From assembly GCA_948144175.1 (NCBI GenBank), contig CANXME010000501.1, forward strand, positions 930,001 to 994,000: a DNA stretch of 64,000 nt, given 5' to 3'. Under the pieces are notes generated by a model. The model was not told the origin of the DNA and made no database searches. It saw only the letters and a list, made by a program, of their open reading frames with translations. Source of the DNA: Closterium sp. NIES-65 (taxonomy: Eukaryota > Streptophyta > Zygnematophyceae > Desmidiales > Closteriaceae). This document shows, one piece after another, positions 19,644 through 60,436 of the stretch. A program made the translations under genes and the position numbers. The first letter of the stretch is position 1. Every line of letters begins with the position of its first letter.

Positions 19644-19753
19644 TGTCAAATGTTGTAGCCTGTAGTGAGGTTTGTCTTAGGGGGTACAGAAGTTAGGGTT
19701 TGTCATATGTACCCCAACCAACATCAATGGACACATCATTCCTCATTCTGACA
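19644..19753 (+). repeat. Copia A 5' LTR
   Basis: Begins TGTCAAATGTTG and ends CATTCTGACA, with terminal TG/CA. Unusually short for a Copia LTR (110 bp). Confidence 0.95.
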
Positions 19754-19762
19754 TGGTATCAG
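19754..19762 (+). other. Copia A primer-binding site
   Basis: TGGTATCAG directly abuts the LTR and matches the first nine bases of the standard initiator-tRNA-Met PBS TGGTATCAGAGC. Confidence 0.85.
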
Positions 19763-19849
19763 CTAGGTTAGGATCCTGTGGGATCCCGTTCCTCCGTTCT
19801 CCGTTCGTACCTCCCGAGCCTGATCCTACCTCTCGTTCGTACCAGTTCC

Positions 19850-20530
19850 GTTGTTACCGAGCCTAGCGCCCTTTCCCCCGTCGCTTAGCGCCCTTTCTCC
19901 CCGTCGCCTAGCGCCCCCCCCCCCCCCGTCGCGTCGCGCCCTTTCCCCCCCCCCGTCACGCCCTTTCCCCCCGTCGCGTCGTGCCCGTTCCCCCCGTCGC
20001 GTCGTGCCCGCCTGTTCCCCCCCCGTCCCGTCGCCCTGTCCCGTCGCGTCGCCCTACCCCGTCCCGTCGCCCTGTCCCGTCCCGTCGCCCTGTCCCGTCG
20101 CGTCGCCCTACCCCGTCGCGTCGCCCTGCCCCGTCCCGTCGCCCTGCCCCGTCGCGTCGCCCTGTCCCGTCGCGTCGCCCTGCCCCGTCGCGTCGCTCCC
20201 GCCCTTTCCCCCGTCGCGTCGCCCTGCCCTACGCCCTGGCCCGTCGCCCTGCCCTAAGCCCTGGCCCGTCGCCCTACCCTAGGCCCTGGCCCGTCGCCCT
20301 CCCTAAGTCCTGGCCCGTCGCCCTACCCTAGGCCCTGGCCCGTCGCCCTACCCTAGGCCCTGGCCCGTCGCCCTACCCTAGGCCCTGGCCCGTCGCCCTC
20401 CCTACGCCCTGGCCCGTCGCCCTACCCTAGGCTCTGGCCCGTTGCCCTCCCTAAGCCCTGGCCCGTCGCCCTACCCTAGGCCCTGGCCCGTTGCCCTACC
20501 CTACGTCCTGGCCCGTCGCTCTAGCCCGCT
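19850..20530 (+). repeat. GC-rich leader minisatellite of Copia A
   Basis: Between PBS and gag ATG. First a C-rich GTCGC/CCCTGTCCCGTCG repeat, then about ten 25-bp units containing GGCCCGTCGCCCTACCCTAG. No start-led ORF across it looks like a protein. Confidence 0.85.
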
Positions 20531-20599
20531 CTTCCGCTGCGACTGAGTCCTCTTCCCCCCCGGTTGTTACTCGCCTGTTCGTTCGCTTTAGTCCTCACT

Positions 20600-22522
20600 A
20601 TGGCGACTCCGCGAGTTCTTCGTTTCGACGCTGACGGTAGACCCCTTGACTTTTCCGTCTGGCTTCTTCGCGCTCGCCGTCTGTTAGAGAGTCAGGTCCA
20701 GGGGGGCGAGACCCTCTGGTCACACGCTACTGGTGACCTCCCTGAGCCCCCCGAGCCTACAGCTTCAGGCCCTGCTCCTGACGACGCTGCTACGGCTCGC
20801 TTTGCCCGTCAGCGCGCTGACCAGACGGCTTGGACGTCGCGTGACGCTGCGGCCTGCATCGCACTCAGCAGCCTCCTCCCTGAGTCCGAGGAGGTCCACT
20901 TTACTCAGGTTCACACCGCTGCTGCGTACCTCACTGCGATTAAGGCCCGCTACTCTACTCCCGCTACTGTCTCTCTTGGCCGTCTTTTCCTCCCGTTCCT
21001 GTTTCCTGATCTTGCCTCGTTTGAGCGCTCTGCTGACTTGATCGCTCACCTCCGCTCGCTCGACGCTAGTTACCGCGCTGCTTGCACTGAGGCACAGCTT
21101 ACACTGCTTCCTCCCCCCATGGCGATCACTGTCTATTTCATCGCCACTAGCCTCCCTGACCGCCTTGCCTCCGTTCGTGACGCGCTTCTGCTGAAGCACC
21201 CTAGTGAGCTGACTATCGAGGTCCTTGAGTCTGCACTCAAGGACGTCGAGAGCAACCTTCGTTCGGTAGCTGCCGCCTCTGGTACTGTGTCCCCCCCACT
21301 CTTCCACGGGTGCACAGTCCCGCAGTTACCCACCTTCACTGCCTCTCTAGCCACTGCCGCTACTGACGCGACTGTGGCTGCTGTTACGACTGCGTCGCGG
21401 TCCCGCAGCAGGAGGGGCAAGAAAGGTGGTTCTGGTGGAGGTGGAGGCGGAGGTAGCGGAGGTAGTGGGGGTGCTGTTGCGACTGGCGGTGGTGGGAGTG
21501 CAGCGTCTGGAGAGACCCCTCGTGCAGCGGCTGGTGACTCCACTGCACCTGCTGGTGGCGGCGACCCCCGAGCTCGTCAGTCGCCTCCTGTACTGCCGGC
21601 CCCGCTAGGTGGAGCAGCGGCGTGGTACCAGGCTCAGCGTCAGCAGCACCTTCAGCAGCAGCAGCAGCCCCTTTCCTCCCAGCAGCCTCAGCAGCAGCAG
21701 CGTCAGCAGCTGGCTCCGGGGTCGGGGCTGCGTCAGCCCCAGCGCGGTGCGGCTTACCCTCCCTGCCCCTACCAGGTTCAGACAGGTCCTCGTCGGGGCC
21801 ACCCTTGTGGCCGCTTTCACCCCCCTGGTCAGTGCTTTGCTCAGCTCACTGACACGGTCCGGTTGACCTACGGGGTTGGCGGTCCTGCTCCTGACTGGCT
21901 TCCTCTGGTTCAGCGCTACGGCTCCGCTCTGTGGGGCATGTCTGCTGAGCAGTTAGTTGATCTGATTAGTGCTCCTCATGCTATGTATGCTGTTGTTGAC
22001 TCTAGTGTTTCTGACTCTGTTTACTCTGGTGTTGTTAGCTTAGGTGCTAGTCTTGCTCAGTTGCCTGTTGCTAGTGTAGGTACTTGTGTAGACTCTAGAC
22101 CAGCGACTACCTCAGGGGACGCTTCGCTGTCGTTCACACTGGACTCTGGAGCCTCCCACTGCTTCTTCCGGGACAGCACGACACTTACACCACTTCCTGC
22201 GCCTGTTTCTGTAGCGTTGGCTGATCCCACTACGGGACCAGTCACTGCCCGTCACACTACCACTTTACCGTGTCCTGCTGCTCCCTCCGAGTCTCTCACT
22301 GGGTTTCACGTCCCCTCGTTCTCCCGGAACTTGGTGGGCGTGCGACCCCTCGTGAGTCAGCACGTGGGTGTGTGGTTTGAGCCTTCTGGAGAGACTGCGG
22401 TGTGTGTTGACGGAGACTCTTACCAGCCTCTTGCTACCTTTACTGCTGAGCCGGGCTCGGGTCTCTACACTCTTCACACTGGCCCGCGTGCGCCGCAGCA
22501 GCAGCCGCAGCAGCAGCAGTAG
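20600..22522 (+). CDS. gag-pr: Copia A gag-protease block
   Basis: I start at 20600 (MATPRVLRF) because Copia B begins with the same words (MATPSVLTF). About 640 residues. The N-terminal gag capsid domain (ARYSTPATVSLGRLFLPFLF, then the ESALKDVE region) is followed by a Gly-rich linker and a Gln-rich linker. A stretched zinc knuckle runs from CPYQVQTGPRRG to HPPGQC (C-X13-C-X3-H-X4-C), and the aspartic protease signature LDSGASH lies near residue 515. It ends at TAG 22520 within a Gln repeat. The frame then continues open into integrase, so a single C-to-T change of a CAG codon explains the stop; readthrough is possible but unsupported. Confidence 0.85.
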   Translation: MATPRVLRFDADGRPLDFSVWLLRARRLLESQVQGGETLWSHATGDLPEPPEPTASGPAPDDAATARFARQRADQTAWTSRDAAACIALSSLLPESEEVHFTQVHTAAAYLTAIKARYSTPATVSLGRLFLPFLFPDLASFERSADLIAHLRSLDASYRAACTEAQLTLLPPPMAITVYFIATSLPDRLASVRDALLLKHPSELTIEVLESALKDVESNLRSVAAASGTVSPPLFHGCTVPQLPTFTASLATAATDATVAAVTTASRSRSRRGKKGGSGGGGGGGSGGSGGAVATGGGGSAASGETPRAAAGDSTAPAGGGDPRARQSPPVLPAPLGGAAAWYQAQRQQHLQQQQQPLSSQQPQQQQRQQLAPGSGLRQPQRGAAYPPCPYQVQTGPRRGHPCGRFHPPGQCFAQLTDTVRLTYGVGGPAPDWLPLVQRYGSALWGMSAEQLVDLISAPHAMYAVVDSSVSDSVYSGVVSLGASLAQLPVASVGTCVDSRPATTSGDASLSFTLDSGASHCFFRDSTTLTPLPAPVSVALADPTTGPVTARHTTTLPCPAAPSESLTGFHVPSFSRNLVGVRPLVSQHVGVWFEPSGETAVCVDGDSYQPLATFTAEPGSGLYTLHTGPRAPQQQPQQQQ

Positions 22523-25166
22523 TCGCAGCCGCAGCAGCAGCAGCAGCAGCAGCAGCAGCACCAGCGGCCGCACCAGCAGCCCCCCCTACTGCCACTGCCC
22601 CCGGTTCCCCCCCCCGTTCGGGTCCCCGTGTCTCACCAGGTTGCTTCGTCCCCCCAGGTGTCTGTGTCGTGTCAGGTTCCTACGTCTGTTCCAGTCGCTG
22701 CGTCGTGCTCCTGCCGGTCGCTTGCCCACCCCACCGTTCTGTGGCACCACCGGATGGGGCACCCGTCCCTTCCTCGTCTGCGCGCTATGTCTAGTCAGCG
22801 TCTTGTCCTAGGCCTCCCACGTGTCTTGCCGTCGCTGCCGCCTTCGCTTGCGCCGCCGTGTCGTCCCTGCGTCGAGGGTAGGCTGCGCGCCACCCCTCAC
22901 TCCTCCTCCCTTCATCCGGCCACCGAGCCTTTTGAGACGCTTCACTTGGACGTCTGGGGCCCCGCCCCTCGTCTAGGCCCTGAGCGTGAGCGTTACTTTC
23001 TGGTGGTCGTTGACGACTTCTCCCGCTACACCACAGTGTTCCCACTGGCGAAGAAGTCTGAGGTGACTTCTACGCTGATCAGGTGGTTGCTCACCACCGA
23101 GGACACTCGTGGTCGTCGTGTCAGCTGTCTCCACTCCGACCGTGGGGGTGATTTTTGCTCCGGCATTCTCGCTGGATTCTGTCGCGAGCAGGGCATCCGT
23201 CAGTCCTGGACGCTTCCAGAGTCCCCACAGCAGAATGGGGTTGCTGAGCGCCGCATAGGCCTGGTCATGGAGATCGCCCGCACCTCCCTGACTCACGCCT
23301 GTGCCCCCCATTTTCTGTGGCCCTACGCGGTCAGGTACGCCGCGCACCAGCTGAACCTCTGGCCACGTGTCTCTCGACCAGAGGTTTCACCGACCAGTCT
23401 TTGGACAGGGTCCCCTGGTGTTGCGTCGCGGTTTCGTGTCTGGGGGTGCTTGGCTCTTGTCCGCGACACCTCCGCGGACAAGCTCTCGCCTCGTGCCGTC
23501 CCCTGTGTCTTCCTTGGTTTCCCTGAGGACTCCTCTGACTTCACCTTTTACCACCCTCCCTCTCACCGGTTCTTTGACTCCCGTGACGTCCGTTTCGAGG
23601 AGTCCACTCCGTACTACGTCAGGTACCCCAGTCGAGGTCTCCCGGTTCCTCCTCCCCCCCTCTTCCTGACTGCCGCTCCCCCTCCTGCTCCCCCGGTACA
23701 GCCTCCCCCCCCTGGCCCAGCCCCGTCAGGTGTGTCCCAGGCTACCCCTCCTCCTTCGGTAGCCCCTCCGGTACAGCCTCCCTCCCCACAGTCCTCCTCG
23801 CAGCGTGCCGCAGGTGCTAGCTCTCGAGAGGTTGGTGTTGCGCCTGTTCCTGTACCGGTTTCTGGTTCTGGGGGTGCTGGAGTTGGAGCTGGTGTTGGAG
23901 CTGGAGGTGGAGCTGGAGTAGGCACTGGAGTTTCTGGTTCTGGGGGTGCTGGAGTTGGAGCTGGAGTTTCTGGTTCTGGAGTTGGAGCTGACCCGGTGGG
24001 TGCAGAGGACTCTTGTCGTCCGGGAGCCGGTGCTGGCCGCGCGGACTCTGGGGGTGCTCCCTCTGGGGGTGAGGGTGCGCCTGCTTCGGGTTCTGGTGCG
24101 CCTGGGTCTGGAGCTGGTGTTAGTGCTGCCTCTGGGGGTGGTGCGCCTGGTTCTTCGGGGGTTGACTCTGGAGCTGCCGCTGCTTCGGACACTACTCCGC
24201 CCCCCCACCCCTACCCGACTAGGCACCAGGCTCGTGTTCGCCGTGCGCGTGACGAGCAGCTGGAGTTGGAGAGAGAGGAGAGGGAGTTACAGCGGCTGGC
24301 GGAGCAGCAGCAGCAGCTGGACCCGCAGGACCAGCAGTCCCAGCAGCAGCCGCTTCCGCAGCAGCAGCAGTCGCAGCAGCAGCAGCAGCAGCAGCCACTT
24401 CCTCCTCCTGTCTCGGGTCTTCGGGCCCTTGGTCTCCCCTCCCCTTCTCCTCCCTCCTCCGCCTCTCCTCCTGTCTACGGTCCCACGTTTCCTCCGCCTG
24501 ACTCCTCCCCCGCTGTTTTCTCTAGTTCTCCGCCTTTGTCCTCTCCTCCTCCGTCTCGTTCTTGGGCTACTCGTCGCTCCCCTCGTGCTCGTCCCTCGTC
24601 TCCTGTTCCCTTCACTGACCTTCGTACTGCCTTACTTTGTTCCAGTCCACCTCGTCCGTCTCAGTCTGTGCTACCGTCTCCTCCTGAGTCGGCCCTCACC
24701 GTGTCGCTCCCTACTCCTGTCACTGACTACTACCGCACGTACCGTCCTGTTCTCTCTCGTGTTCTCGCCTCTCTTGTTACTCACCCTCATGCCTCTGTGT
24801 CCTCTGTGTCTGCTCTTACTGCCGCGGTTACTGACTTTGCCGCTACCCGCCGCCTTGACTACGCCACCACGCTTGTGGCTGCTCCTCCTACCAGTCCTCT
24901 GGCCGTCGGGGGTGTGTCTGCCCTTGGCTGTGACGCCCTAGAGGACAGGCAGTTTGAGCTAGAGTTCCTGGCGGCCGCTTCCCCTCATCTCTGTGCCATG
25001 CTCCTCGCCCCTGAGGGTGACCCCGACGCCCTTGACATTCCGACTCCTCGCACTTACGCTGAGGCAGTGTCAGGGCCTTGGGCCTCTCAGTGGAGAGCTG
25101 CCATGGACGCAGACATGGCCTCCTACAGATCCATAGGCACCTACGTCGATGAGGTTCCCCCCCCCC
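22523..25166 (+). CDS. int: Copia A integrase and start of RT
   Basis: Same frame as gag-PR after the TAG. Shows the HHCC zinc domain (LWHHRMGHPSLPRL ... CRPCVEGR) and the DDE core: LDVWGPAPRL with D, then SDRGGDF with D, then PQQNGVAERRIG with E. There follows the GxGAG-type linker (about 23860-24180), a Gln-rich stretch, and the RT lead-in (TYAEAVSGPWASQWRAAMDADM). The frame is lost at a run of ten C (25157-25166); Copia B has nine bases at the matching place, so one C was gained or is a sequencing error. Confidence 0.85.
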
Positions 25167-26606
25167 GGGGCGAACGTAGTCGACGGCATGTGGATCTACA
25201 GGGTGAAGCGGCCACCGGGATCTCCCCCGGTCTTCAAGGCGCGCTACGTGGCTAGAGGTTTCAGTCAGCGCGAGGGAGTTGACTTCTTTCAGACCTTCGC
25301 ACCTACCCCGAAGATGACCACTCTTTGGGTGTTGCTACACGTAGCAGCACAGAGAGACTACGAGTTACACTCTCTCGAATTCTCCACTGCTTTCCTTCAG
25401 GGCAGCCTACACGAGGAGGTCTGGTTGCGTCGTCCCTCGGCCTTCACTGGCACTTTCCCTCCTGGGACCCAGTGGAGGCTGAGGCGACCTGTTTACGGTC
25501 TTCGCCAGGCCCCTCGCGAGTGGCACGACACTCTGCGTTCTACCCTCTCTGACCTTGGGTTCCAGCCGTCTTCTGCCGACCCGTCGCTGTTCGTTCGTCG
25601 TGGCTCCACACCGTTCTTTGTTCTGGTCTACGTCGACGACCTCGTTTTCGCCACTCCGGACAGGGTTGCTTTGGCAGACGTGAAGTCCGAACTGCAGAAG
25701 AGACACACGTGCACTGATCTTGGTGAGCTGCGCCACTACCTTGGCCTGCAGATCACCAGGGACAGAGCCGCTCGCACCATTACACTCTCACATTCACACA
25801 TGGTGCAGCAGGTCCTTCAGCGGTTCGGGCTTCAGCACTCCACCGTACAGCGCACACCTCTCGCTGTTGACCACAGACTCACTGGTCCCTTTCCTGACGA
25901 GTCGTTTGAGCCTAGTGGTCCCTACGCAGAGCTTGTGGGTTGCCTCATGTACCTGATGACTTGTACTCGCCCGGACCTCGCCTTCCCTCTCAGCATCCTT
26001 GCGCGCTTTGTTGCGCCAGGGAGACACCGTCCTGTTCACTGGACGGCAGCTGTGAGGGTGGCGAAGTACCTAGCGACTACATCAGGCGTGGGGCTAGTTC
26101 TTGGAGGGCAGCAGTCTGTCGTACTCACTGGTCACTGTGACTCCTCTTACGCTGACGACGCTGAGACTCACAGGTCTACTCAGGGGTACTGTTTCAGTCT
26201 GGGTTCTGGAGCTGTTTCCTGGCGTTCCACGCGCTCCTCTTCTGTCTCGACCTCTACAGCTGAGGCTGAGATTTACGCTGGTGCCATGGCGGCACAGGAG
26301 TTGCGGTGGTTGACCTTCTTGCTCGCCGACCTTGGTGAGCGGCCGAGCTCTGCACCGACCTTGTTTACTGACAACAAGGCGTCGATCCTCCTCTGTCGTG
26401 AGCCGCGACTGGAGAGCAGAGTGAAGCACATTCACGTCAGGTACTTTCTTCTGCGAGAGTTGCAGAGACGTGGACAGGCTCGCTTCGAGTTCGTGGAGTC
26501 CGAGGCCAACACTGCAGACATCTTCACCAAGGCGCTTCCGCCTCGTGACCACCAGAGGTGTTGTGTGCAGTTAGGCCTTGTTGACACAGGTTCTAGTCAT
26601 GTGTAG
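25167..26606 (+). CDS. rt-rh: Copia A reverse transcriptase and RNase H
   Basis: About 480 residues in the +1-shifted frame. RT signatures GMWIYRVKRPPGSPPVFKAR, QREGVDFFQTFAPTPKM, FSTAFLQGSLHEEVW, VYGLRQAPREWH and the catalytic LVYVDDLVFA are all intact. RNase H follows with TGHCDSSYADD, STAEAEIYAG, LFTDNKASI and EANTADIFTKALP. The stop is at 26604-26606, about 200 bp before the 3' LTR. Confidence 0.9.
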   Translation, partial: GANVVDGMWIYRVKRPPGSPPVFKARYVARGFSQREGVDFFQTFAPTPKMTTLWVLLHVAAQRDYELHSLEFSTAFLQGSLHEEVWLRRPSAFTGTFPPGTQWRLRRPVYGLRQAPREWHDTLRSTLSDLGFQPSSADPSLFVRRGSTPFFVLVYVDDLVFATPDRVALADVKSELQKRHTCTDLGELRHYLGLQITRDRAARTITLSHSHMVQQVLQRFGLQHSTVQRTPLAVDHRLTGPFPDESFEPSGPYAELVGCLMYLMTCTRPDLAFPLSILARFVAPGRHRPVHWTAAVRVAKYLATTSGVGLVLGGQQSVVLTGHCDSSYADDAETHRSTQGYCFSLGSGAVSWRSTRSSSVSTSTAEAEIYAGAMAAQELRWLTFLLADLGERPSSAPTLFTDNKASILLCREPRLESRVKHIHVRYFLLRELQRRGQARFEFVESEANTADIFTKALPPRDHQRCCVQLGLVDTGSSHV

Positions 26607-26809
26607 ACTTGAGTTTATTGCCTGCTTCGTCTGTACACTTGCTATATATACTTGTGATCTCTTGGACTGGCCTTGTGGCCACTGTTGCTTGTGCTCAGAG
26701 TGTGTGGTGACGTTGTGATCCACCCTGAGCTTTGTTTTCTTTTGGACTGGTCTTGTGACCGTACTCTTTTTGATTTTGCTAGACACCCCTCACTTAGGCT
26801 ATGGGGGTG

Positions 26810-26919
26810 TGTGAAATGTTGTAGCCTGTAGTGAGGTTTGTCTTAGGGGGTACAGAAGTTAGGGTTTGTCATATGTACCCCAACCAACATCAATGGACAC
26901 ATCATTCCTCATTCTGACA
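26810..26919 (+). repeat. Copia A 3' LTR
   Basis: 110 bp, starting TGTGAAATG and ending TTCTGACA; preceded by a GGGGG polypurine tract at 26803-26807. Confidence 0.95.
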
Positions 26920-33901: not shown

Positions 33902-34194
33902 TGTTGGAAACAATCGGTCCTAAGCGCCTCTGTTGTGTCGAAACACTAAGGCACAAGCGAAGCAAAGCATATCGAGGCACCAGCGAGTCAACCCTCGGAG
34001 GTTGAAGTAACTGCTGGAGGTTACGCGGAAGTCAAAGGTCAGCGACCTTTGACCTGACAAGTAGAGCGCGACAGCAAGGACACACAACTGACTCGCTACA
34101 GAGCAGTTGCGCGACTCGTCACTGTATCGAACTGCAACAGCAACAAGTAAAACAGTTATAACCGTATCCTTTCATATTCCTCGTACTCTTATAT
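33902..34194 (+). mobile_element. Truncated Copia C-family LTR
   Basis: Starts TGTTGGAAACAATCGG and follows the 59992-60436 LTR closely for 293 bp. It then ends abruptly at CTTATAT, where the next LTR begins; the missing right part was not found downstream. Confidence 0.85.
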
Positions 34195-42114: not shown

Positions 42115-43909
42115 ATGGAGGGCCAAGGCGACAACTACGCGACTACGAGCGACATCGCGAGCCTCCGCACCGACATGGAGCAGACGCAGGCGACACTTCG
42201 TCGACTCGAGGCTTTTCTGACAAGTCAACCAGGGTTCGCCACCGCAGCAGCAGCGACCACAGCGACTGCAGCACCGACAACTCCAGCAGCAGTGGCGACA
42301 CTGACATTTCACGGACCAATGGCACCACTGTCGCCGAACCTTGAAGCAGCACGACCGAGGCTCCCGGAGGCGTTCGATCCAAGCGCGAAGGGATCCGACG
42401 TCCGGCGATTCGTGGCCACCCTCGAAATTTACTTCGAGGCCATTGGCTGTTCGGCCCCGCAACACGACGCAGCAAGGATTCGGCTCACAACGACACTGTT
42501 ACGTGGACCGGCTCTCGAATGGATTTACTACACCGACGTAGCCCGCGGGGAGAAAACGTGGCAGCAGTTTCGGGCAGATTTAATCGAGCGTTTCGAACCA
42601 ATTAATACAACCTACATGGCGCGGCAACAGATACACCGATACAAGCAATACAGTAGTGTAACACAGTACACGCTGCAGATGGAGTTACTGTTCAACCGCA
42701 TCACCGACCTAACCGAAGGCGAAAAAATCCAGGCGTACACCGAAGGATTAAAAATGGAGGTTCGGCGGCAGGTGATTGCGGCGAATTACAACAGCTACAG
42801 AGACATCGTGCGTGCTGCCGAGCGATACGACGCGCTGACTCGAAGTCAACCCGAAACACGACGCTTCACGCCGAACCGTACATTCGGCACGGAGCGATCG
42901 ACACCCCCCACGTTCACCGAACCGATGGATATCGACAAATACGACGCGAAGCAGCAGCCGACAAAATGCGAATTTTGCGGCGCAGCGGGACATCAGTTTT
43001 TTGTCGTGCTACAAAATCAAGAAAGCACGTGCGGCACTCCGGGACGGAAACAGTGGAGCACCCCCGAAGTAAAAAAACGGGAATCGCCAGTAGCCGCGGA
43101 TCGACCTGGCGATCGCGTAAAGATCCGAAAAGCAGGAAAAGGCGACGACGTGGCGACTTCGGAGCGGGTGAAAAAAGGAGAAAATGATGGCGCGAATTTA
43201 AAACGTCACGACCGGCCGGCATCAGGGGAAATCGACGAGGCGAATGGAGGCTCCGCGAAAAAAGACTCTGCATCGACCGGGAAACTCCAGCCGAACACCC
43301 ACGAAAGTAAGAATTCGTTAAAAGTATCCTATAAAGATGCTCTAACGAAGAATATTGCTTCTCGTGGTTTACAAGCCTTCAAAAAATTCAGGGGAGGTCT
43401 AGAGGCCAAGAAAAAGCCTTTAGAAATTATTCAGGTACCTGAGAAGTTGGGCAAAATACTACGGAGCGTAGAGAAGGGTCGTGCGTTCCGTGGAGTTAAT
43501 ATTCTCTCCCCGCAGCACACTGTTAAGGCTCCCCGTCGCCCACAGGTGAAGCCTACACAGCTGCCAAGGCGTAGAGGAGACATCCAGGCTCAGGAAAAAT
43601 TATACAAGCCTCGGAAAAATCCTCCTACCCCCCAGGTGAAGTTGGAAAGCGCAGAGTCAGGTATAGGAAAAAGGGAAGGTATTAAGTTTGATGTACCCTA
43701 TGATCCTGTTAACGAGACCCTCTTTGGCTACTCAGCACAGCAGAAACCACTACTCCTCGAGGTGTTATGCAATGGGCGACGCCTCCAGGCACTGGTGGAC
43801 AGCGGTGCATCTCACTCGGTGTGTGACCGCGGAGCATTGGAGAAAATTGGAGAGAAGGCGGAAGAGACCCAGTTTTCAGCAACCATGGTGGAGGGTACGA
43901 AGCTTCCTA
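42115..43909 (+). pseudogene. gag: Gypsy gag and first part of protease
   Basis: Open from MEGQGDNYATT. The Retrotrans_gag-type capsid shows RLPEAFDPSAKGSDVRRFVA, then LRGPALEWIYYTD, then FRADLIERFEPINTTYMARQ. The knuckle starts CEFCGAAGH but continues FFVVLQ, so the final Cys is missing, probably a local rearrangement near 43000. A Lys-rich linker leads to the aspartic protease signature ALVDSGASHSVCD. The frame is interrupted at 43909 by the 582-bp miniature LTR element and continues in frame at 44498, so this insertion is the only break at this point. Confidence 0.8.
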
Positions 43910-44051
43910 TGTCAGAATCCCAACCACTAGACCATTGGGATAAAAGGGCTTGTTCAGTAGCGGGTCAGAGTGCGCCCATAACCCCCCAGGCAAACGCGCC
44001 TGTAACCCCCCGTAGGATCAATCGGGCATCCACAGTGCAGATCTACTGACA

Positions 44052-44144
44052 CCCCCCCACACTGGGAGGCCCAGGACTGAGCACAGCGGCAACGGCCTAC
44101 ATGTGCATACACCGGGATTCGAACCCGAGACCACTCTGACACCA
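44052..44144 (-). other. Internal segment 1 of the TRIM-like element
   Basis: 93 bp; PBS with one change (TGGTGTCAGAG), B box at 44125-44115, PPT of eight G at its far end. Carries about 27 bp more than internal segment 2, between the B box and the PPT. Confidence 0.8.
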
Positions 44145-44287
44145 TGTCAGAATCCCAGTCACTAGACCATTGGGATAGAAGGGCTTGTTTCAGTAGCGGG
44201 TCAGAGTGCGCCCATAACCCCCCAGGCAAACGCGCCTGTAACCCCCCGTAGGATCAATCGGGTATCCACAGTGCAGATCTACTGACA

Positions 44288-44353
44288 CCCCCCCACACTG
44301 GGATGCCCGAAGTGCATACACCGGGATTCGAACCCGAGACCGCTCTGATACCA
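44288..44353 (-). other. Internal segment 2 of the TRIM-like element
   Basis: 66 bp; 12-base PBS TGGTATCAGAGC matching the initiator-tRNA-Met type, B box at 44334-44324, G-rich PPT beside LTR 44287-44145. Confidence 0.85.
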
Positions 44354-44497
44354 TGTCAGAATCCCAACCACTAGACCATTGGGATAAAAGGGCTTGTTAA
44401 GTAGCGGGTCAGTGCGCCCACAACCCCCCAGGCCAACATGCCTGTAACCCTTCCCTAGGATCGATCGGGGATCACCAGTGGACCTCTGACATCCTAT

Positions 44498-45557
44498 CCA
44501 CGGCGAAGCATCACTGCAACTGCATATAGGTGCATTGAGGTGGAAGCCGAAGCTACCAGTCACCAATATCAAAGGATTAGATTTTATCTTGGGGCGAGAT
44601 TTCCTGAAGCAGTTCAACCCCGAGATCGATTGGGTCAACAGCAAGGTGTGCATCTACAACAACGGGAAACGAGTGGAGCTGCGAAGCTGGACCGATACAG
44701 GGGACATACCTGAAACGACACTGGCACGGTTCGAACAGACGGTGAACAAGAGTAACACGCGTTACCTTGCACTGGTTATGGCAGCAGCAGAGGAGGAGAA
44801 GCCGAGTTCCGAGCTATCTGCAGCAGTGAAAGAGGTCTTGGAGCAGTACAAGGATATAATGCCCGACGACCTACCTGCAGGCGTACCTCCAGCACGCACC
44901 CACGAGCACGAGATCGTGGAGGAACCAGGTGCGAAACCCGTCTCACGTGCACCATACCGACTGAGTCCGACTGAACTGACAGACATGAAAAAACAGATAG
45001 AGTATCTACTGGACAGACAACTCATCCGCCCATCCACCTCTCCCTACGGCGCACCAGTTCTCTTCACTCCAAAACCAGACGGCAGTTTACGGATGTGCAT
45101 CGACTACCGCGCACTGAACAAACAGACAATCAAAAACAAATATCCCATACCGCGCATAGACGACCTACTTGATCAACTGCGTGGAGCAACAGTATTTTCA
45201 AAACTGGACCTACGATCGGGCTACTGGCAGATCAAGATGGCAGACAACTCCGTCCACAAGACAGCGTTCCGTACCAGATACGGCTCCTACGAATACTTGG
45301 TGATGCCGTTCGGACTCTGCAACGCACCAGCAACGTTTCAGGCGGAGATGAATCACATCTTACGACCCCTGCTGGACGAATGCGTGGTGGTGTACCTGGA
45401 CGACATTCTCATCTACTCCAAGAACATGAAGGAGCACGTAGAGCATCTGCGGAAGGTGTTCGAGATCGTGCGGAAAAACAAGTTCTACGTGAAGCTGTCA
45501 AAGAGCGACTTCGCCCTGAAGAAGGTGCAGTTTCTCGGGCACATGGTGAGTGCCGAG
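44498..45557 (+). pseudogene. pol: Gypsy reverse transcriptase block
   Basis: Opens in frame with the gag-protease block once the miniature element is ignored. Protease tail [20 protein letters not shown], then RT with [74 protein letters not shown] and the catalytic [13 protein letters not shown]. It stops after FLGHMVSAE, where Copia D is inserted. Confidence 0.9.
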
Positions 45558-45689
45558 TGTTAGAACATTATAGCTTATGCTTTTGTGTAGGCTATAGTGG
45601 GGTATCCCATAGGGGGTACAACCCAATTACGGTTAGTAATTGTACCCACTTCGCTCATAGTTCATCCCATTCTCGTTCTCATTCTCACA
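45558..45689 (+). repeat. Copia D 5' LTR
   Basis: TGTTAGAACATTATAGC to CATTCTCACA. One early base differs from the 3' LTR (TGTTAG against TGTCAG). Confidence 0.95.
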
Positions 45690-45779
45690 TGGAATCAGAG
45701 CAGGTCCCCTCCTAGGGACTGTTTCTTGGGCCCACCGAAGCGCGCCCCGAGGCGCGCGTTTTTTTTTAGCGACCCGTAG

Positions 45780-46600
45780 TGTCGCCCTCCCCCCCTCCCA
45801 GCGGCCCGTCGCGCCGCCTTTCGGTCGCGGCCCCGCCGCCCTACTCTAGCGGCCCCGCCGCCCTACGTCGCGGCCCCGCCGCCCTACCCTTCGACGGCGC
45901 CACCGCCCTAAGTCGCGGCCCCGCCGCCCTACTTCGACGGCCCCGCCGCCCTACCCTACGTCGCGGCCCCGCCGCCCTACCCCTCGACGGCGCCGCCGCC
46001 CTACGTCGCAGCCCAGCCGCCCTACTTCGACGGCCCCGCCGCCCTACGTCGCGGCCTCGCCGCCCTACTTCGACGGCCCCGCCGCCCTACCCTACGTCGC
46101 GGCCCCGCCGCCCTACCCTTCGACGGAGCCGCCGCCCTACGTAGCGGCCCCGCCGCCCTACTTCGACGGCCCCGCCGCCCTACGTTGCGGCCCCGCCGCC
46201 CTACTTTGACGGCCTCGCCGCCCTACGTCGAGGCCCCGCCGCCCTACCCTACTTCGCGGCCCCGCCGCCCTACGTTGCGGCCCCGCCGTCCTACCCTACA
46301 TCGACGGCCCCGCCGCCCTACTCAGCGGCCCGCCAGCCGCCCTACCCGCGGCCCACCCGCCGCCCGACCGCCGGGTCGCCCAGCCGCTGAGCCGCCGAGC
46401 CGCCCAGCAGCCGACCGCCGAGCCGCCGAGCTGCCGAGCAGCCGGGCCGCCGAGCCGCCCAGCAGCCGAGCAGCCGAGCCGCCCCGCAGCCGAGCCGCCG
46501 AGCACCGAGCCGCCCCGCAGCCGAGCCGCCCAGGAGCCGAGCAGCCGAGCCGCCGAGCAGCCGAGCCGCCCCGCAGCCGAGCCGCCGGCCGCTGAGCTGC
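45780..46600 (+). repeat. GC-rich leader repeats of Copia D
   Basis: First about 20 units around CGGCCCCGCCGCCCTAC, then a GAGCCGCCGAGCAGCC repeat, all between PBS and the gag start at 46705. Same position as the different repeats in Copia A and B. Confidence 0.85.
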
Positions 46601-46704
46601 CCTACTTCCATACGGCCCGTTCTACCCAGCCTGGTGAGCACAGAGCCTTCTTTTTCACTGCGCTGCCCTCACCCTACTGCTTGCACTGCTAGGCGTCTAT
46701 CGTC

Positions 46705-49700
46705 ATGGCTACCCCCAGTGTCCTCGCTTTTTACGCTGAGGGTCGGGCCATTGACTTTGAGGTCTGGGTAGATGACCTCCAGCTGTTCTTACAGTGCGAT
46801 AGGGCAGACGGCATCTCTCTCTCTTTGACCTTACCTCTGGCGCTTCCCCTGCCCCTGCTGCTAATGCTGACCCTACTGTTCGCTCCCAGTGGGCTAGGCG
46901 CGATGCTGCTGCATGTCTTGCTGTGCGTCGCCACCTCCCTACATCTAAGCGTGCGCACTTTAGTCAGTACAAGAGTGCTCAGACCTTGTACGACGCTGTA
47001 GTTGCGCGCTACTCCTCCCCTGCCACTGCTGCACTGAGCCGCCTCATGCTACCCTTCCTCTTCCCTGACCTTGCCGCCTTTCCCACAGTCGCTGATCTCA
47101 TTACGCATCTCCGCACTAGTGACACCCGCTACCGCGCTGCGCTTCCTGCTGACTTCTGCGCCAAGAACCCCCCCCCCCCCATGTACATCACTCTCTACTT
47201 TCTAGTCACCCGCCTCCCCGACTCCCTTCGTGTAGTCCGGGACCACTTCCTCGCGGTCTGTCCCACCACTCTCACAGTCGACACCCTAGAGAAGGCCCTC
47301 CTAGCGGCGGAGAAGAGCATCGTCGCTGTAGGAGCCTCTCGAGGTGGCCCCCGCGCCCCCATCTTTGAGGGGCGTTCTCCTTCCCCTCTCTTGCCCTCTG
47401 TCGCCTCTGCCGCTGCGGCCGACCTCGTTGGTCTTGAGTCGGTCGGTGCGGCGTCTGCCCCTAGCGGGAGACGTCGCCCTGGCAAGGGCAAGGGGGGCAA
47501 GGGAGCGGGTGGGGCTAGCGGGGGCGGTGGCGGTGGAGGTGGAGGCGGCGGAGGGAGTGGGAGTGGCGGTGGAGGAGGTGGCGGGGGTGGGGGTGCTAGT
47601 GGCAGCAGTGGTGGCGGAGGCGGCATCGGCGGCGGCGGTACCGGCGGGGGTGGCGGCGGTGGCGGAGGTGGAGGAGGTGGAGGAGGAGGTGGTGGAGGTG
47701 GTCGGAGTGGCACTTCACAGCGGAGCGGCACTGGGGGTGGTCAGCGCCAGCAGCAGCAGTAGCAGCGTTCTCGCAACGTCCCCACCCCTCAGCAGCTCCG
47801 TGAGTGGTACACGCAGCGTAAGCGTGGTGGGGGACTTGGTCCCTGCACCTACGTCCTTCGCACCGGCGACCGCGCGGGTGAGCAGTGTGGGGGTGCCCAT
47901 CCCACCCAGCACTGTTTTGGCCGCCTGACGGACGCTTGGCGTCAGCAGTTTCCGGAGGCCACGGAGATCCCCCGCTGGGGAGAGCTGTCTAGGGCTGGCG
48001 TGGCTATCTTTGATCTTGACTTTGATGCTATCCTTGCTGCCATGTATGCTGTGACTATTAGTGATGAGGGTGACTGTTACCGGTGTTTCCCGCTCGACCC
48101 GGGCATTGGTACTGCTGCGCTAGGTGCTTGTGAGGCTACTGCTCTAGGTGCCAGTGCGTCTGCGCTCTCAGGTGCTAGTGAGGCTGCGCTCTCAGGTACT
48201 AGTGAGGCTGCGCTCTCAGGTACTGCGTCGGCTTCGGCCTCCCTCACCTTCACACTTGACTCTGGGGCTTCTCGCACCACACTCACGCCGCTTGGTCGGC
48301 CGGTTGCAGTCTCCCTGGCTGACCCCTCTGAGGGTCCTGTCCTAGCTCACTTCTCCACTGTCCTCCCGTGTGCGGCTGCCCCCTCGGGCACCCTGTCGGG
48401 TCTGTACCTCCCCTCGTTTCGACAAACTTGGTGAGTGGTGCTGACCTGGAGGATGCGGGGGTTCACCAGTTTACTCCTGCGAGTCAGCGGGGGACCCACT
48501 GCTCGGACGCCCGCACATGCCGACACCTAGCCACGTTTTCGCGTCGGCCCGGGTCGAGTCTCTACACCCTGACCATTGAGTCTCCTCCAGCCCCTTCGTC
48601 TAGCCAGGTAGCTGCGTCGGGTCAGGTGTTTGCTGCTGCGTCCAGGTCTGGTCCTGAGTCTGCCCCCTGCTCGTGTCGCCTCCTGTCTCATGAGACTCTC
48701 TTGTGGCACCACCGTCTTGGCCACCCCTCCTTGCCTCGTCTTCGGGGCATGGCTTCCCGTGTCCTTGTCTCTGGTCTCCCCCGGTCTCTCCCTCCCCTTC
48801 CTTCTAGGCCAGGACCTTCCTGTGTCCCTTGTGTCGAGGGGCGGCTCTGGGCTGCCCCTCACTCCTCCCAGTTACCCCCGACAGAGGCTCCTCTGCAGAC
48901 GCTTCACATGGACGTGTGGGGCCCGGCCCGCGTCCGTGGACAGGGTCACGAGCGCTACTTCCTGCTGGTGGTTGACGACTACTCGCGTTACACCACAGTC
49001 TTCCCCTTGCGCAGCAAGGGTGATCTCACTGAGGTGTTGATCGACTGGATCCTCGCGGCTCGTCTCAAGCTCAGGAGGAGCTTTGGCTCGGACTTTCCTG
49101 TTCTGCGTCTGCACTCTGACCGAGGCGGATAGTTCTCCTCTGGCCTTCTGCGAGCCTACTGTGGTGCACGAGGCATCCGCCAGACCTTCACGCTTCCGGA
49201 CTCTCTACAGCAAAATGGGATTGCTGAGCGCCGCATTGGCATGGTCATGGACGTCGCTCGTACGTCCATGATGCATGCGGCTGCCCTCCATTTTCTGTGG
49301 CCGTTTGCGGTTCGGTACGCGGCGCATTAGCTCAACCTTCACCCCAGAGTCTCCCGGCCGGAGACCTCCCCAGCTCTGCTGTGGACGGGGAAGGTCGGCG
49401 ATGCGTCTGCGTTCCGTGTCTGGGGATCTCGTGCGTTTGTCCGTGACCTGTCTGCGGACAAGCTGTCCCCTCGTGCTGCTCCCTGTGTCTTCCTAGGCTT
49501 CCCCCCTGACGCCCCAGGGTGGCAGTTCTACCACCCCTCCTCTCGTCGTGTTCTGTCCTCCCAGGACGTCACGTTCGACGAGTAAGTCCCCTTCTACCGC
49601 CTCTTCCCCTACCGCACTCCTTCCCTCCCGCCGCCGCCGCACTTTCTTGTACCAGGTCCCCCCCCGGTAGACCCCCTTCCCCCTCAGGGTCCTGCCCCTT

Positions 49701-52686
49701 CAGGTGTGTCCCAGGTCGATGCAGTCGAGCCGGTCGAGGTTGCTGGTGACTCAGGTACTGCTGGGGGTGCTGCGCCTGGGGGTGCTGACTCTCGGGGTGC
49801 TGAGTCTAGGGGTGCTGAGCCTGGGGGTGCTGAGTCTGGGGTGCTGAGCCTAGGGGTGCTGAGCCTGGGGGTGCTGCCTCTGGGGGTGCTGAGCCTGGGG
49901 GTGCTGACTCTGAGGGTGCTGCGCGCGTGGGTGCTGAGCCTGGGGGTGCTGAGCCTGGGGGTGCTGCGTCTGGGGCTGCTGAGCCTGGAGGTGTGGAGCC
50001 TGCGGCCACAGGACCTCCCCTTGTGGCGTCTGACGGTACTGGGCGTGGAGGTTCTCCGGGTGTTTCGTCTCGGCGGGAGCCACTCTCTCCACAGGAGCTG
50101 CGTGAGTGGTTTGCTCGCCGCTGGAGGCGTACTCCTGGAGCTGGCGCTTCTTCAGCCGCTGAGGGTGCTGGTGCCGCCGGTCCCGGAGCTGCTGGGCCTG
50201 CGGGTCCGCCTGGAGCTGGAGCTGCTGAGGGTATTGGTTCTGAGACTACTACTGTACGTTCTGGTGGTGGTCGTGCTGCGGGTACTGCTGGCGCTACTGG
50301 AGGTCCTGCCGCTGGAGGTGCTTTTGGCGCTGGTGCTGCCGGAGGTGCTGAGGGTGCTGGTGCTGTCCCTGCTGTGTCTGGTGCCGCCGCGCGGCCTCGG
50401 CCGTACTTCCTTCCGCTCCTTCAGCAGGTTCTTGGTCTTCCTCCTCTCTTAGAGGGTCCACCGCCTGTCCAGTCGCAGTCACAGTTAGCGCCGGCCTCCC
50501 CACTGCCTTCTCCGTCTCCGTACACTGGTCCTACTGGTGGTCTTGCTGAGCGTCGTGAGCCTGCGTCTCGTCCTGTGTCGCCTGTTCGTGCTGCTCGCAC
50601 TAGTGGTCGCAGTTCGCGTCAGCGTCCTCCTCCTGTCCCTGGCACGCACCGGATGTCTCAGCGTCCGTCCACTGCTCCTCTGCGTGCCCCTTTGCCCTCT
50701 CCTCCTGAGTCCTCTCTTCCTGCGCTTGCCGACCCTGAGTCGAACTCTCTTCGTGCTGCCAGTCCTACTGTCACGCGTCTCCTTGCTACTGTCGTCACTG
50801 ACCCCTCCTTTGAGTCCACTGCTGCGTCTGCTCTTGTTGCTGAGCTCGTCGACTTCGCTGCTCGCTGTCGTCTAGACTACGCTGCTAGTCTTGTCGCTGA
50901 GTCTGCGTCTGTCTGTCATCCGTCCGTCGGGGGTGAGTGTGCTCTTGGCACGGACGTCCTTGAGGACAGGCAGGAGGAGTTCCAGTGTCTGGCTGCTGCT
51001 TCACCTCATCTCGCGTCTGTACAGCTTGCCCCTGAGGGAGACCCGGATGCACTAGACATCCCGACTCCGCGCTCTTACGCGGAGGCTGTAGAGGGTCCCT
51101 ACTCCTCTCAGTGGCAGGCAGCTATGGATGCAGAGATGGCTTCCTGAAAGTCCACAGGCACCTACGTTGACGAGGTTCCCCCTCCTGGTGCGAACATTGT
51201 CAGTGGGATGTGGATCTTCAGGGTGAAGCGGCCGCCGGGCTCTCCACCTGTCTTCAAGGCGCGGAACGTGGCTCGTGGCTTTAGTCAGCGGCAGGGAGTT
51301 GACTACTTTCAGACCTTCTCTCCCACCCCGAAGATGACCACTCTTCGGGTGCTGCTGCACATAGCCGCTCAGCGCGACTACGAGCTCCACTCTCTTGACT
51401 TCAGCACTGCTTTCTTGCAGGGTAGCCTGCACGAGGAGATCTGGCTGCGCCGTCCACCTGGCTTCACTGGGACTTTCCCTCCTGGCACCCAGTGGAGCCT
51501 CCGACGGCCAGTCTACGGTCTCCGCCAGGCACCACGTGAGTGGCACGACACACTGAGGACTACGCTTGCGGCTCTTGGGTTTGCTCCCTCTACTGCTGAC
51601 CCGTAGTTGTTTCTGCGCACCGACACTTCTTTGCCGCCGCTCTACATCCTTGTGTACGTCGACGACTTGGTCTTTGCCACAGCGGACACTGCTGGACTCA
51701 CCTACGTGAAGTCCGAGCTGCAGAAGAGACACATGTGCACAGACCTGGGTGAACTGCGTAGCTACCTTGGCTTGCAGATCACTCGGGACAGAGCACGCCG
51801 CACCATTACCTTGACTCAGTCACACATGGTGCAGCAGGTCCTTCAGCGCTTCGGCTTCACGTACTCCTCGCCTCAGGCCACTCCTCTGTCTACTCGCCAC
51901 TCGCTCTCAGCTCTGCCTTCGGATGAGTCCGTAGAGTCGAGTGGCCCGTACCCAGAGCTTGTTGGCTGCCTCATGTACCTGATGACCTGCACACGACCTG
52001 ACCTTGCATACCCTCTTAGCATCTTGGCACGCTATGTTGCTCCTGGGAGACACCGAACAGAGCACATGGCTGCAGCGAAGAAAGTGTTGCGCTACTTGTG
52101 CAGTACGTCGGGCATGGGGCTAGTGCTTGGAGGGCGGAGTCCAGTGGTCCTCACTGGGCACGCGGACGCTTCTTGGGCTGACGACCAGGCTACGTAGCGG
52201 TCGTTGCAGGGTTACACCTTCAGCCTTGGTTCCGGCTCTGTTTCATGGCGGGCTACTCGCTCGTCTTCTGTTCTCGGCTCCAGTTGTGAGGCTGAGATCT
52301 ACGCCGGGGCCATGGCTGCTCAGGAGCTTCGCTGACTCACCTACCTGCTGACTGACCTTGGAGAGCCGCCTCGTTCTCCTCCAGTGCTGTACGTAGACAA
52401 CAAGGCCATGCTGGCCTTGTGTCGAGAGCAGCGCCTGGAGCACAGAACGAAGGACATTGCTCTCCGCTACTTTCTTGCTCGTGAGCTGCAGCAGCGTGGT
52501 CAGTTACGACTTGCGTACGTGGCCTCTGAGGCCAACACTGTTGATGTTTTCACCAAGGCACTTCCGCCTTGTGATCATCAGCGTTTCTGTACTCACCTGG
52601 GACTTGTCCCAGTCTTGCCTCACTTGCTCACCTCTTCACCTTACTTGTACTCTTGCATATATATATGCCTGCTCTTGCTTGTTTAG
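46705..52686 (+). pseudogene. gag-pol: Copia D gag-pol, with frameshifts and stops
   Basis: MATPSVLAFYAEGRAIDF starts gag. Frameshifts occur near 46820, 48425 and 49840. Stops include TAG 47760 (Gln run), 49130 (integrase DRGG-stop), 49328 (YAAH-stop, as in Copia B), TGA 51145, TAG 51604, TAG 52195 and TGA 52333. The protease has DSGAS but lacks about six residues just after it. Stretched knuckle CTYVLRTGDRAGEQCGGAH is intact. RT keeps YVDD; RNase H keeps YVDNKAML. Near-identical LTRs with so many coding lesions suggest a defective copy mobilised in trans or rapid decay after insertion. Confidence 0.85.
47515..47735 (+). repeat. Poly-Gly coding tract in Copia D gag
   Basis: GGN-rich simple repeat coding for about 70 Gly with a few Ser/Ala/Thr. 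The same tract is at 36600-36835 in Copia B and a shorter one near 21430-21500 in Copia A. On the minus strand it reads as poly-Pro, which explains the long false ORFs there. Confidence 0.9.
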
Positions 52687-52687
52687 A

Positions 52688-52722
<35 letters not shown>
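52686..52722. repeat. (AT)n microsatellite
   Basis: About 17 uninterrupted AT repeats in the Copia D 3' non-coding region; the matching place in Copia B has only short TATATA stretches (41741-41787). Confidence 0.95.
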
Positions 52723-52725
<3 letters not shown>

Positions 52726-52872
52726 TCCTCCTGCATGTGAACTGGCCTTGTGGCCTTGACCTTGTGCTCAGACTGTGTGGTGACATTGTGATCCACCCTG
52801 AGCTTGCTTTGCTCTGCTTTGCTTGACTGGTCTTGTGACCCCTTGTTCTCTCCCACTTTGCCTATGGGGGTG

Positions 52873-53004
52873 TGTCAGAACATTATAGCTTATGCTTTTG
52901 TGTAGGCTATAGTGGGGTATCCCATAGGGGGTACAACCCAATTAGGGTTAGTACTTGTACCCACTTCGCTCATAGTTCATCCCATTCTCGTTCTCATTCT
53001 CACA
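52873..53004 (+). repeat. Copia D 3' LTR
   Basis: 132 bp, TGTCAGAACATTATAGC to CATTCTCACA, followed by the target duplication CCGAG. Confidence 0.95.
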
Positions 53005-59991: not shown

Positions 59992-60436
59992 TGTTGGAAA
60001 CAATCGGTCCTAAGCGCCTCTGTCGTGTCGAAACACTAAGGCACAAGCGAAGCAAAGCATATCGAGGCACCAGCGAGTCAACCCTCGGAGGTTGAAGTAA
60101 CTGCTGGAGGTTACGCGGAAGTCGAAGGTCAGCGACCTTTGACCTGACAAGTACAGCGCGACAGCAAGGACACACAACTGACTCGCTACAGAGCAGTTGC
60201 CCGAGTCGTCACTGTATCGAACCGCAACAGCAACAAGTAAAACAGTTATAACCGTATCCTTTCATGTTCCTTGTACTCTTATATAATCTTGTATCTCCTT
60301 GTTTTAATCAACTTACTTTTGCCCTCACATACTAGCGCAAGGTGGTTCACAACTCTTTATTAACGCTTCCGCTACTACACCAACTCTACCTAGAGTTCAC
60401 CCCTGCAAAGATCCTAAGAGCTTTTTCAGCCCAACA
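59992..60436 (+). repeat. Copia C 3' LTR
   Basis: 445 bp from TGTTGGAAACAATCGG to CAGCCCAACA, preceded by a purine-rich PPT (GAAGCGAAGGGGAG). Confidence 0.9.

What the first reader, a model, noticed from the sequence alone, without database searches (positions are those of the whole stretch)
43910..44491. Tandem TRIM-like element with a tRNA-like Pol III module across its LTR/PBS junctions
Seen: a 582-bp insertion with a 5-bp TSD (TCCTA), three 138-143 bp LTR-like repeats and two internal segments of only 66 and 93 bp, each with a PBS flush to the LTR and a G-rich PPT. The LTR 3' end supplies a perfect A box (TGGTCTAGTGG) and the internal segment a perfect B box (GGTTCGAATCC), 44 bp apart as in a tRNA. 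The first half and T arm resemble tRNA-Glu, while the anticodon-arm position is occupied by the LTR end plus initiator-tRNA PBS (TCTGA-CATGGTA-TCAGA can pair as a 5-bp stem). Known: TRIMs are non-autonomous mini LTR elements, and Cassandra carries a 5S-type Pol III promoter. A TRIM with a tRNA-type promoter that itself contains the PBS would be a different solution. Inference: the Pol III start would lie inside the LTR, so one module may serve transcription and priming.
Basis: partly seen in the sequence, partly recalled or inferred. Interest (0 to 1): 0.88.

Follow-up and report, generated by a model that had tools for sequence, protein, structure and literature searches.

The report
Miniature retrotransposon with split tRNA-type promoter
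A tiny, protein-less mobile element, present in thousands of copies in a green alga related to land plants, seems to build a tRNA-type promoter out of the very junction where its reverse transcription starts, a variation on a recently described kind of element.

Summary
43910-44491 (sense: minus) is a TSD-flanked insertion, LTR(138)-int(66)-LTR(143)-int(93)-LTR(142), in the protease region of a Gypsy element. It is a composite of two miniature LTR subfamilies. In the 874-Mb host assembly 3,625 places carry TGGTATCAGAG (primer site) followed by a B-box core, 2,684 of them also the A-box core; reversed-pattern controls gave 0. Single LTR-int-LTR copies of 342-377 bp with 5-bp TSDs were found at 16 of 17 and 15 of 20 sampled loci. 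The primer site is complementary to 13 nt of the host initiator tRNA. So it is a TRIM, plausibly moved by local Copia elements, not a SINE. The A box lies in the LTR end and the B box in the internal segment, 44 bp apart, with the primer site between. Known tRNA-type TRIMs (Helenus, 2024) are described as carrying the tRNA-like sequence inside the LTR; the split is a new variant of a known kind. Tandem and inverted TRIM arrays are already known. Pol III transcription is inferred, not shown; the tRNA-Glu resemblance is weak (tRNA model 16.4 bits, cutoff 29).

The parts
43905..43909 (.). target site duplication TCCTA (left)
44492..44496 (.). target site duplication TCCTA (right)
44354..44491 (-). 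5' LTR, 138 bp, U3 type a (TGTCAGAGGTCC...TTCTGACA)
44386..44389 (-). TTTT run in the 5' LTR just upstream of the tRNA-like module; proposed Pol III start about 10 nt upstream of the tRNA-like start (AAGCCCTTTT), inferred
   Evidence: sequence; inference
44368..44378 (-). A box TGGTCTAGTGG in the 5' LTR end
44341..44353 (-). primer-binding site TGGTATCAGAGCG, 13 nt complementary to the host initiator tRNA 3' end plus CCA (CCA assumed, not encoded)
44324..44334 (-). B box GGTTCGAATCC in internal segment 1
44288..44353 (-). internal segment 1, 66 bp (PBS, B box, PPT)
44288..44294 (-). polypurine tract GGGGGGG flush to the middle LTR
44145..44287 (-). middle LTR, 143 bp; T-run interrupted (TTCT, 44177-44180) and A box changed (TGGTCTAGTGA, 44159-44169)
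44132..44144 (-). degenerate PBS TGGTGTCAGAGTG of internal segment 2
44115..44125 (-). B box GGTTCGAATCC in internal segment 2
44052..44144 (-). internal segment 2, 93 bp, ending in PPT GGGGGGG (44052-44058)
43910..44051 (-). 3' LTR, 142 bp, U3 type c; TTTT at 43942-43945 as proposed Pol III terminator (inferred); no B box follows it

Best explanation
It is a copy of an abundant TRIM family of a Closterium-like alga. Two subfamilies (LTRa-int1, about 342-347 bp; LTRc-int2, about 375-377 bp) occur as singles and in composites such as this one. SHOWN: LTR/PBS/PPT/TSD anatomy, thousands of junctions, PBS complementarity to the host initiator tRNA, A box in the LTR end and B box in the internal segment at tRNA spacing with the PBS between them. 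INFERRED: RNA polymerase III factors bind the A and B boxes of the 5' LTR-internal junction, transcription starts about 10 nt upstream of the tRNA-like part (near AAGCCCTTTT) and stops at the TTTT of a following LTR, giving an RNA with a very short terminal repeat; initiator tRNA primes on the PBS and a Copia element's proteins copy and insert it. Because the B box lies outside the LTR, the complete promoter exists only where an LTR is followed by an internal segment, so 3' LTRs and solo LTRs would lack it.
For: TSDs outside LTR ends: 16 of 17 distinct loci (20 stretches fetched, 3 of them duplicates) selected by similarity to LTR-int1, and 15 of 20 stretches taken from the first 100 listed PBS+B-box places (not checked for duplicates). 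Counts 3,625 (TGGTATCAGAGN{1,20}GGTTCGA) and 2,684 (with GGTCTAGTGG upstream), 0 in reversed-pattern controls; duplicated stretches of the assembly are included in these counts. An initiator-tRNA pattern matches 27 places; two were read in full; the PBS fits over 13 nt, or 14 nt in the GAA form. A+B pair in 0 of 20,000 shuffles. The window's 5' and 3' LTRs (types a and c) differ at 21 of 143 columns but at none of the last 45, which hold the T-run, A box and LTR end. In 29 distinct TSD-flanked composites the outer LTRs keep TTTT (55 of 58) and the A box (55 of 58), inner LTRs in 19 of 40 and 10 of 40; the first PBS is good in 26 of 29, later ones in 12 of 40. Partner: Copia 1 and Copia 3 of the window have LTRs of 110 and 132 bp, 5-bp TSDs and a flush PBS of initiator type (Copia 1 matches only 9 nt, Copia 3 has one mismatch in 12); Copia 1 shares the 18-nt LTR end/PBS string. 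The looser B-box pattern GGTTCRANNCC occurs in the window only at the two TRIM junctions. No TATAWA motif is visible in the LTR (by eye).
Against: No RNA or Pol III occupancy data. The tRNA model score is below cutoff. The composite contrasts are confounded by shared ancestry, and loss of the PBS alone could explain them. Inner junctions mostly keep the B box, so the contrast does not test it. The unchanged last 45 columns compare one LTR pair, could reflect exchange or recent descent, and the middle LTR does differ there. The expected number of looser B-box matches in the window by chance is 1.09, so 2 alone is not striking. A TTTT directly after the proposed start is awkward, and a terminal repeat of about 10 nt is very short. 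One TSD-flanked single (L121) has two LTRs with the altered A box and a degenerate PBS, so such a copy can move or be made. In 13 of 29 composites the outer LTRs are less than 97% alike (79.9-96.5%), the window's copy among them at 86%, so those are not plain products of one recent reverse-transcription cycle.
Confidence: 0.66

Rival explanations
1. An ordinary Pol II-transcribed TRIM. The A and B boxes are relics of an old tRNA or SINE insertion near the LTR/internal border and have no present role.
For: Pol III use is untested; tRNA score below cutoff; L121 moved or was formed with an altered A box; canonical TRIMs are taken as Pol II elements (TRIMp2) in PMC10886601.
Against: LTRs with diverged U3 share an unchanged A-box region, the two internal segments share the B-box stretch (first 42 nt 95% identical), and 2,684 of 3,625 PBS+B-box places keep GGTCTAGTGG. 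All of this could also follow from recent common descent.
Confidence: 0.2
2. The tRNA-like stretch acts as an RNA structure (primer recruitment, packaging or particle entry) rather than as a promoter.
For: The LTR hairpin and the TCTGA/TCAGA arm are predicted with high pair probability in all three pieces folded, the T arm in the two short ones.
Against: Folding energy is close to mononucleotide shuffles (86 nt: -23.3 against mean -21.7, sd 3.1; 73 nt: -22.9 against -19.1, sd 3.1; unit: -82.4 against -76.6, sd 4.7), and the T arm dissolves in the unit-length RNA (probability 0.02).
Confidence: 0.09
3. A Helenus element in which the LTR border merely lies further 5' than in described families; same thing, no separate type.
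For: Same size class, 5-bp TSD, tRNA-type boxes; the one plant Helenus (Selaginella, LTR 120 bp, internal 85 bp) is of very similar size.
Against: Helenus is defined by the tRNA-derived sequence inside the LTR, and the figure legend aligns boxes A and B within LTRs (figure itself not seen); here the B boxes found lie in internal segments.
Confidence: 0.03
4. A tRNA-derived SINE moved by a LINE, with accidental repeats.
For: A and B boxes at tRNA spacing.
Against: 5-bp TSDs flush to LTR ends, near-identical LTR pairs, PBS and PPT.
Confidence: 0.01

Closest known systems
Helenus (TRIMp3), Kojima 2024, PMC10886601
   Same: TRIM with tRNA-type A and B boxes, PBS, PPT, 5-bp TSD in fungi and plants, tandem arrays noted for one family; one plant family (Selaginella) of similar size
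   Different: Helenus is described as carrying the tRNA-like sequence inside the LTR, so each LTR has both boxes; here the promoter is divided between LTR and internal segment with the PBS between. The only plant in that paper's Table 1 is Selaginella; no alga is listed.
Cassandra (TRIM with 5S-type promoter)
   Same: Pol III transcript described as starting in the 5' and ending in the 3' LTR with an 18-bp repeat (PMC10886601); tandem arrays (PMC7215508, passages)
   Different: 5S-derived promoter inside the LTR; no 5S match here. The original Cassandra paper was not held.
Tandemly arrayed TRIMs (TA-TRIMs), Gao et al. 2016, PMC4717578
   Same: L3I2 and longer arrays with TSD, and inverted pairs with one TSD (section 8), as in L071 here
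   Different: The terms tRNA, polymerase III and promoter have 0 hits in its main text
tRNA-derived SINEs (SINE2)
   Same: Bipartite A/B-box promoter (general knowledge)
   Different: LINE-type insertion; no LTR, PBS or PPT

Membership tests
TRIM | shorter than 1 kb, LTRs of about 100-250 bp, no coding capacity | tested here: met
   342-377 bp singles with 137-142 bp LTRs; window copy 582 bp; non-coding judged from size, no ORF test made on it
TRIM | PBS flush to 5' LTR, PPT flush to 3' LTR | tested here: met
TRIM | short TSD directly outside the LTR ends | tested here: met
   16 of 17 and 15 of 20 loci in two samples
Tandemly arrayed TRIM | three or more LTRs with two or more internal segments within one TSD | tested here: met
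   29 distinct loci, the window's locus among them
Helenus | tRNA-derived sequence (both boxes) inside the LTR | tested here: not met
   A box in LTR, B box in internal segment
TRIMp3 | TRIM carrying a small-RNA-type Pol III promoter | tested here: inconclusive
   boxes and spacing present, tRNA model below cutoff
TRIMp3 | transcription by RNA polymerase III | not testable with these tools
   no RNA or ChIP data on hand
Cassandra | 5S rRNA sequence in the LTR | tested here: not met
   no 5S match
Retrozyme | hammerhead ribozyme in the LTR | tested here: not met
   only a weak tRNA match at E<=5 in 43700-44700
tRNA-SINE | 5' end at the tRNA-like start, A-rich or simple tail, LINE-type TSD | tested here: not met
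   sampled copies end at LTR ends with 5-bp TSD; no separate search for copies starting at the tRNA-like part

The most novel reading that the evidence does not exclude
The LTR/PBS junction is itself a bipartite Pol III promoter: the A box is supplied by the LTR, the B box by the internal segment, and the anticodon position of the tRNA-like unit is taken by the LTR end plus the initiator-tRNA primer site. The promoter is therefore complete only at LTR-internal joints, re-made at every insertion, and absent from 3' and solo LTRs. In many composites the inner junction has lost terminator, A box and PBS, so the whole array is copied as one transposing unit.
Probability: 0.45. Interest if true: 0.78.

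Novelty: new variant of a known kind. Interest (0 to 1): 0.57.

Why it matters
If Pol III does read these junctions, this would be a promoter that exists only in the join between LTR and internal segment. That would avoid a problem of LTR elements that carry the full promoter in every LTR: 3' and solo LTRs firing into flanking DNA. It would also place transcription and priming signals in one module of about 70 nt and extend Pol III-type TRIMs to streptophyte algae. The family has thousands of junctions and many identical LTR pairs (17 of the 37 rows at 100%, duplicates included), so it can be tested directly.

Tried and rejected
Related copies in viral contigs: two specific patterns gave 0. 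The PBS+B-box pattern returned 20 stretches which, by eye, are 12 copies of one tRNA-gene-like cluster, one further tRNA-like gene (L020) and seven stretches without the element; a B-box pattern gave seven loci that were not examined. tRNA-Glu origin: not supported by two genome patterns. An RF00005 search of the host genome did not complete. An LTR-end count meant to estimate solo LTRs did not complete (last try), so solo-LTR abundance is unknown. A within-family conservation look at the boxes (111 junctions) was set aside: copies are too young and the finder itself required a near-intact B box. The identical 582-bp copy on contig C1682 is not an independent insertion: its 8.5-kb surroundings are 99.5% identical to the window's.

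The idea that degenerate-junction singles prove the junction dispensable was checked. Of three distinct TSD-flanked ones (L120, L121, L130 with L131 taken as one), two have an altered 5' LTR beside a normal 3' LTR, as LTR-LTR recombination inside a composite would give; L121 has both altered and stands against a strict need. Two further ones without exact TSD (L126, L132) are also asymmetric, and L133/L135 (three LTRs, TSD) have two altered LTRs followed by a normal one.

Full report
Anatomy. The element occupies 43910-44491 and reads on the minus strand. TSD TCCTA flanks it on both sides. It consists of LTR (138), internal segment 1 (66), LTR (143), internal segment 2 (93), LTR (142). It lies in the protease region of a Gypsy element: gag domains and a sub-cutoff aspartyl-protease match before it, the reverse transcriptase after it, by Pfam. 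No other copy was found in the window by blastn. At the 5' junction the LTR ends ...TGGTCTAGTGGTTGGGATTCTGACA and the internal segment begins TGGTATCAGAGCGGTCTCGGGTTCGAATCCCGG: A box, LTR end, PBS, B box in this order, with A and B starts 44 bp apart. No dinucleotide shuffle of the unit (0 of 20,000) gave an A+B pair. The Rfam tRNA model sees it only weakly (16.4 bits; cutoff 29), and 16 single copies scanned together gave no match at E<=10.

Host. The held assembly is 874 Mb in 2,400 contigs. A cytochrome b561-like ORF of the window finds one protein at E<=0.001, from Closterium sp. Yama58-4 (73% identity over 43% of the query), so the host is probably a Closterium or a near desmid; the exact species is unknown.

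Copy number. TGGTATCAGAGN{1,20}GGTTCGA occurs 3,625 times (1,766 + 1,859), control 0; with GGTCTAGTGG 8-30 nt upstream 2,684 times (1,301 + 1,383), control 0. Several fetched loci are duplicated in the assembly with 97-100% identical flanks, so independent insertions are fewer. The similarity searches scored only 40 candidates each (of 2,417, 1,142 and 775).

Single elements. Of 20 stretches fetched from the 80 rows of the LTR-int1 search, 17 loci are distinct and 16 have 5-bp TSDs (the exception is L076); LTR 138-139, internal 66. As a sample not chosen for similarity to the whole element, 20 of the first 100 listed PBS+B-box places were fetched: 17 parse as LTR-int-LTR and 15 of the 20 have TSDs, 9 with internal segment 1 (69 bp) and 6 with internal segment 2 (93 bp); L097 and L101 have no exact TSD and L098, L112, L114 are partial. 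One of the 15 TSDs (L103, GCAGC) lies in a GCA-rich stretch and is weak. In these 15 a strict A-box expression matches 13 and a strict B-box expression 14. The 5'-3' LTR identity over the 37 rows parsed from both samples, duplicates included, is 88-100%, mean 98.0.

Composites. Forty stretches around the 58 places of the 582-bp search were fetched (two cover the window's own locus and its duplicate). 29 distinct elements with three or more LTRs and an exact TSD remain after removing duplicates; 19 are of the order int1-int2. In 16 of the 29 the outer LTRs are at least 97% alike, and in 15 of these 16 the second LTR differs from the first by 6-21% (L045: 3.5%), so these composites moved as a unit; in the other 13 the outer LTRs are 79.9-96.5% alike. 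The window's copy is among the 13: outer LTRs 86%, middle and 3' LTR 96.5%, which suggests a recombinant of types a and c. Outer against inner LTRs: TTTT 55 of 58 against 19 of 40, A box 55 of 58 against 10 of 40; PBS good in 26 of 29 first against 12 of 40 later junctions; the PPT is kept in both (27 of 29, 38 of 40). These elements share ancestry, so the p-values printed there are not independent evidence. A further sample, chosen by similarity to internal segment 2 (20 stretches, 17 parsed into two or more LTRs), shows that degenerate-junction singles exist; of three distinct TSD-flanked ones, two have an altered 5' and a normal 3' LTR and one has both altered.

Priming and partner. An initiator-tRNA pattern matches 27 places; two were read in full and ARAGORN called the one tested a tRNA. 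The 3' end plus CCA gives the ideal PBS TGGTATCAGAGCGAGG...; the window's 5' PBS matches 13 nt in a row, the common GAA form 14 nt. Copia 1 (19644-26919, TSD ACCCT, LTRs 110 bp) and Copia 3 (45558-53004, TSD CCGAG, LTRs 132 bp) have a PBS flush to the 5' LTR, and Copia 1 shares ATTCTGACATGGTATCAG across LTR end and PBS; their PBSs are imperfect (9 nt; one mismatch in 12). Of a third Copia only the 3' LTR (134 bp) was placed with confidence. The looser B-box pattern occurs in the window only at the two TRIM junctions, so none of these Copia junctions has one. They are plausible partners; trans-mobilisation is inferred.

Transcription model (inference). In tRNA genes the start lies a few nt upstream of the mature 5' end (recalled). 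That places it near AAGCCCTTTT in the LTR. The TTTT of a downstream LTR would stop the transcript, leaving a repeat of about 10 nt for strand transfer; Cassandra is described with 18 bp (PMC10886601). As the B box is outside the LTR, only LTR-internal joints carry the full promoter.

Literature. PMC10886601 (main text read in six parts; figures and supplement not seen) describes Helenus, TRIMs with the tRNA-like sequence inside the LTR, and states that it found no complementarity between that sequence and the PBS. A search for Helenus/TRIMp3 found that paper, a 2026 meeting report that mentions it (PMC12859917, passages) and one unrelated paper (listing). Five term searches for an LTR element or TRIM with Pol III boxes around the PBS (two of them empty; listings, with passages of PMC3532108, PMC6934838 and PMC7215508) showed me no split promoter; the library is open-licence only, and most listed papers were not opened. 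Searches on Closterium, on TRIMs in streptophyte algae and on the origin of tandem arrays were read as listings only. TA-TRIMs, including L3I2 and inverted pairs with a TSD, are known (PMC4717578, section 8 and passages).

Verdict. The split of the tRNA-type promoter over the LTR/PBS junction is, as far as I could check, a new variant. Its use by Pol III is the likeliest reading but is unproven.

Noticed in passing
L068 (2839-3864): Five-LTR element with TSD TAAGC whose left 374-bp block [LTRa-int2-LTRc] is identical to its right block (0 differences) while an inner LTRa differs by 7. This would fit plus-strand priming at an inner polypurine tract followed by strand transfer, an alternative to unequal recombination as origin of tandem TRIMs. 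L060 and L061 show the same kind of block order but 19 and 17 differences.
   Followed up: partly
L071 (2628-3557): Two elements joined exactly head to head with one TSD (CGAAG) around the pair; the same form is reported for maize SMART.
   Followed up: partly
window 45558-53004: Copia element with 132-bp LTRs and TSD CCGAG inserted into the pol gene of the same Gypsy element that holds the TRIM.
   Followed up: partly
window 19230-19650, 33902-34194, 59992-60409: Three copies (89-97% alike) of a repeat of about 300-420 bp of unknown nature, one ending at the 5' LTR of Copia 1.
   Followed up: no
G000 initiator tRNA genes: Two T-stem versions of the initiator tRNA coexist among the 27 pattern matches (6 with CCAGG/CCTGG, the rest CGAGG/CCTCG or close to it); the TRIM PBS fits the commoner one at its 13th nt.
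   Followed up: no
composite elements, e.g. L038, L039, L049: A variant LTR end TGAGA instead of TGACA usually occurs at both outer LTRs together, and often with a PBS carrying an extra C (TGGTATCCAGAGC); exceptions are L043, L053 and L061.
   Followed up: no
window 2753-3307: 34-bp direct repeat array, 97-99% alike, open in more than one frame.
   Followed up: no
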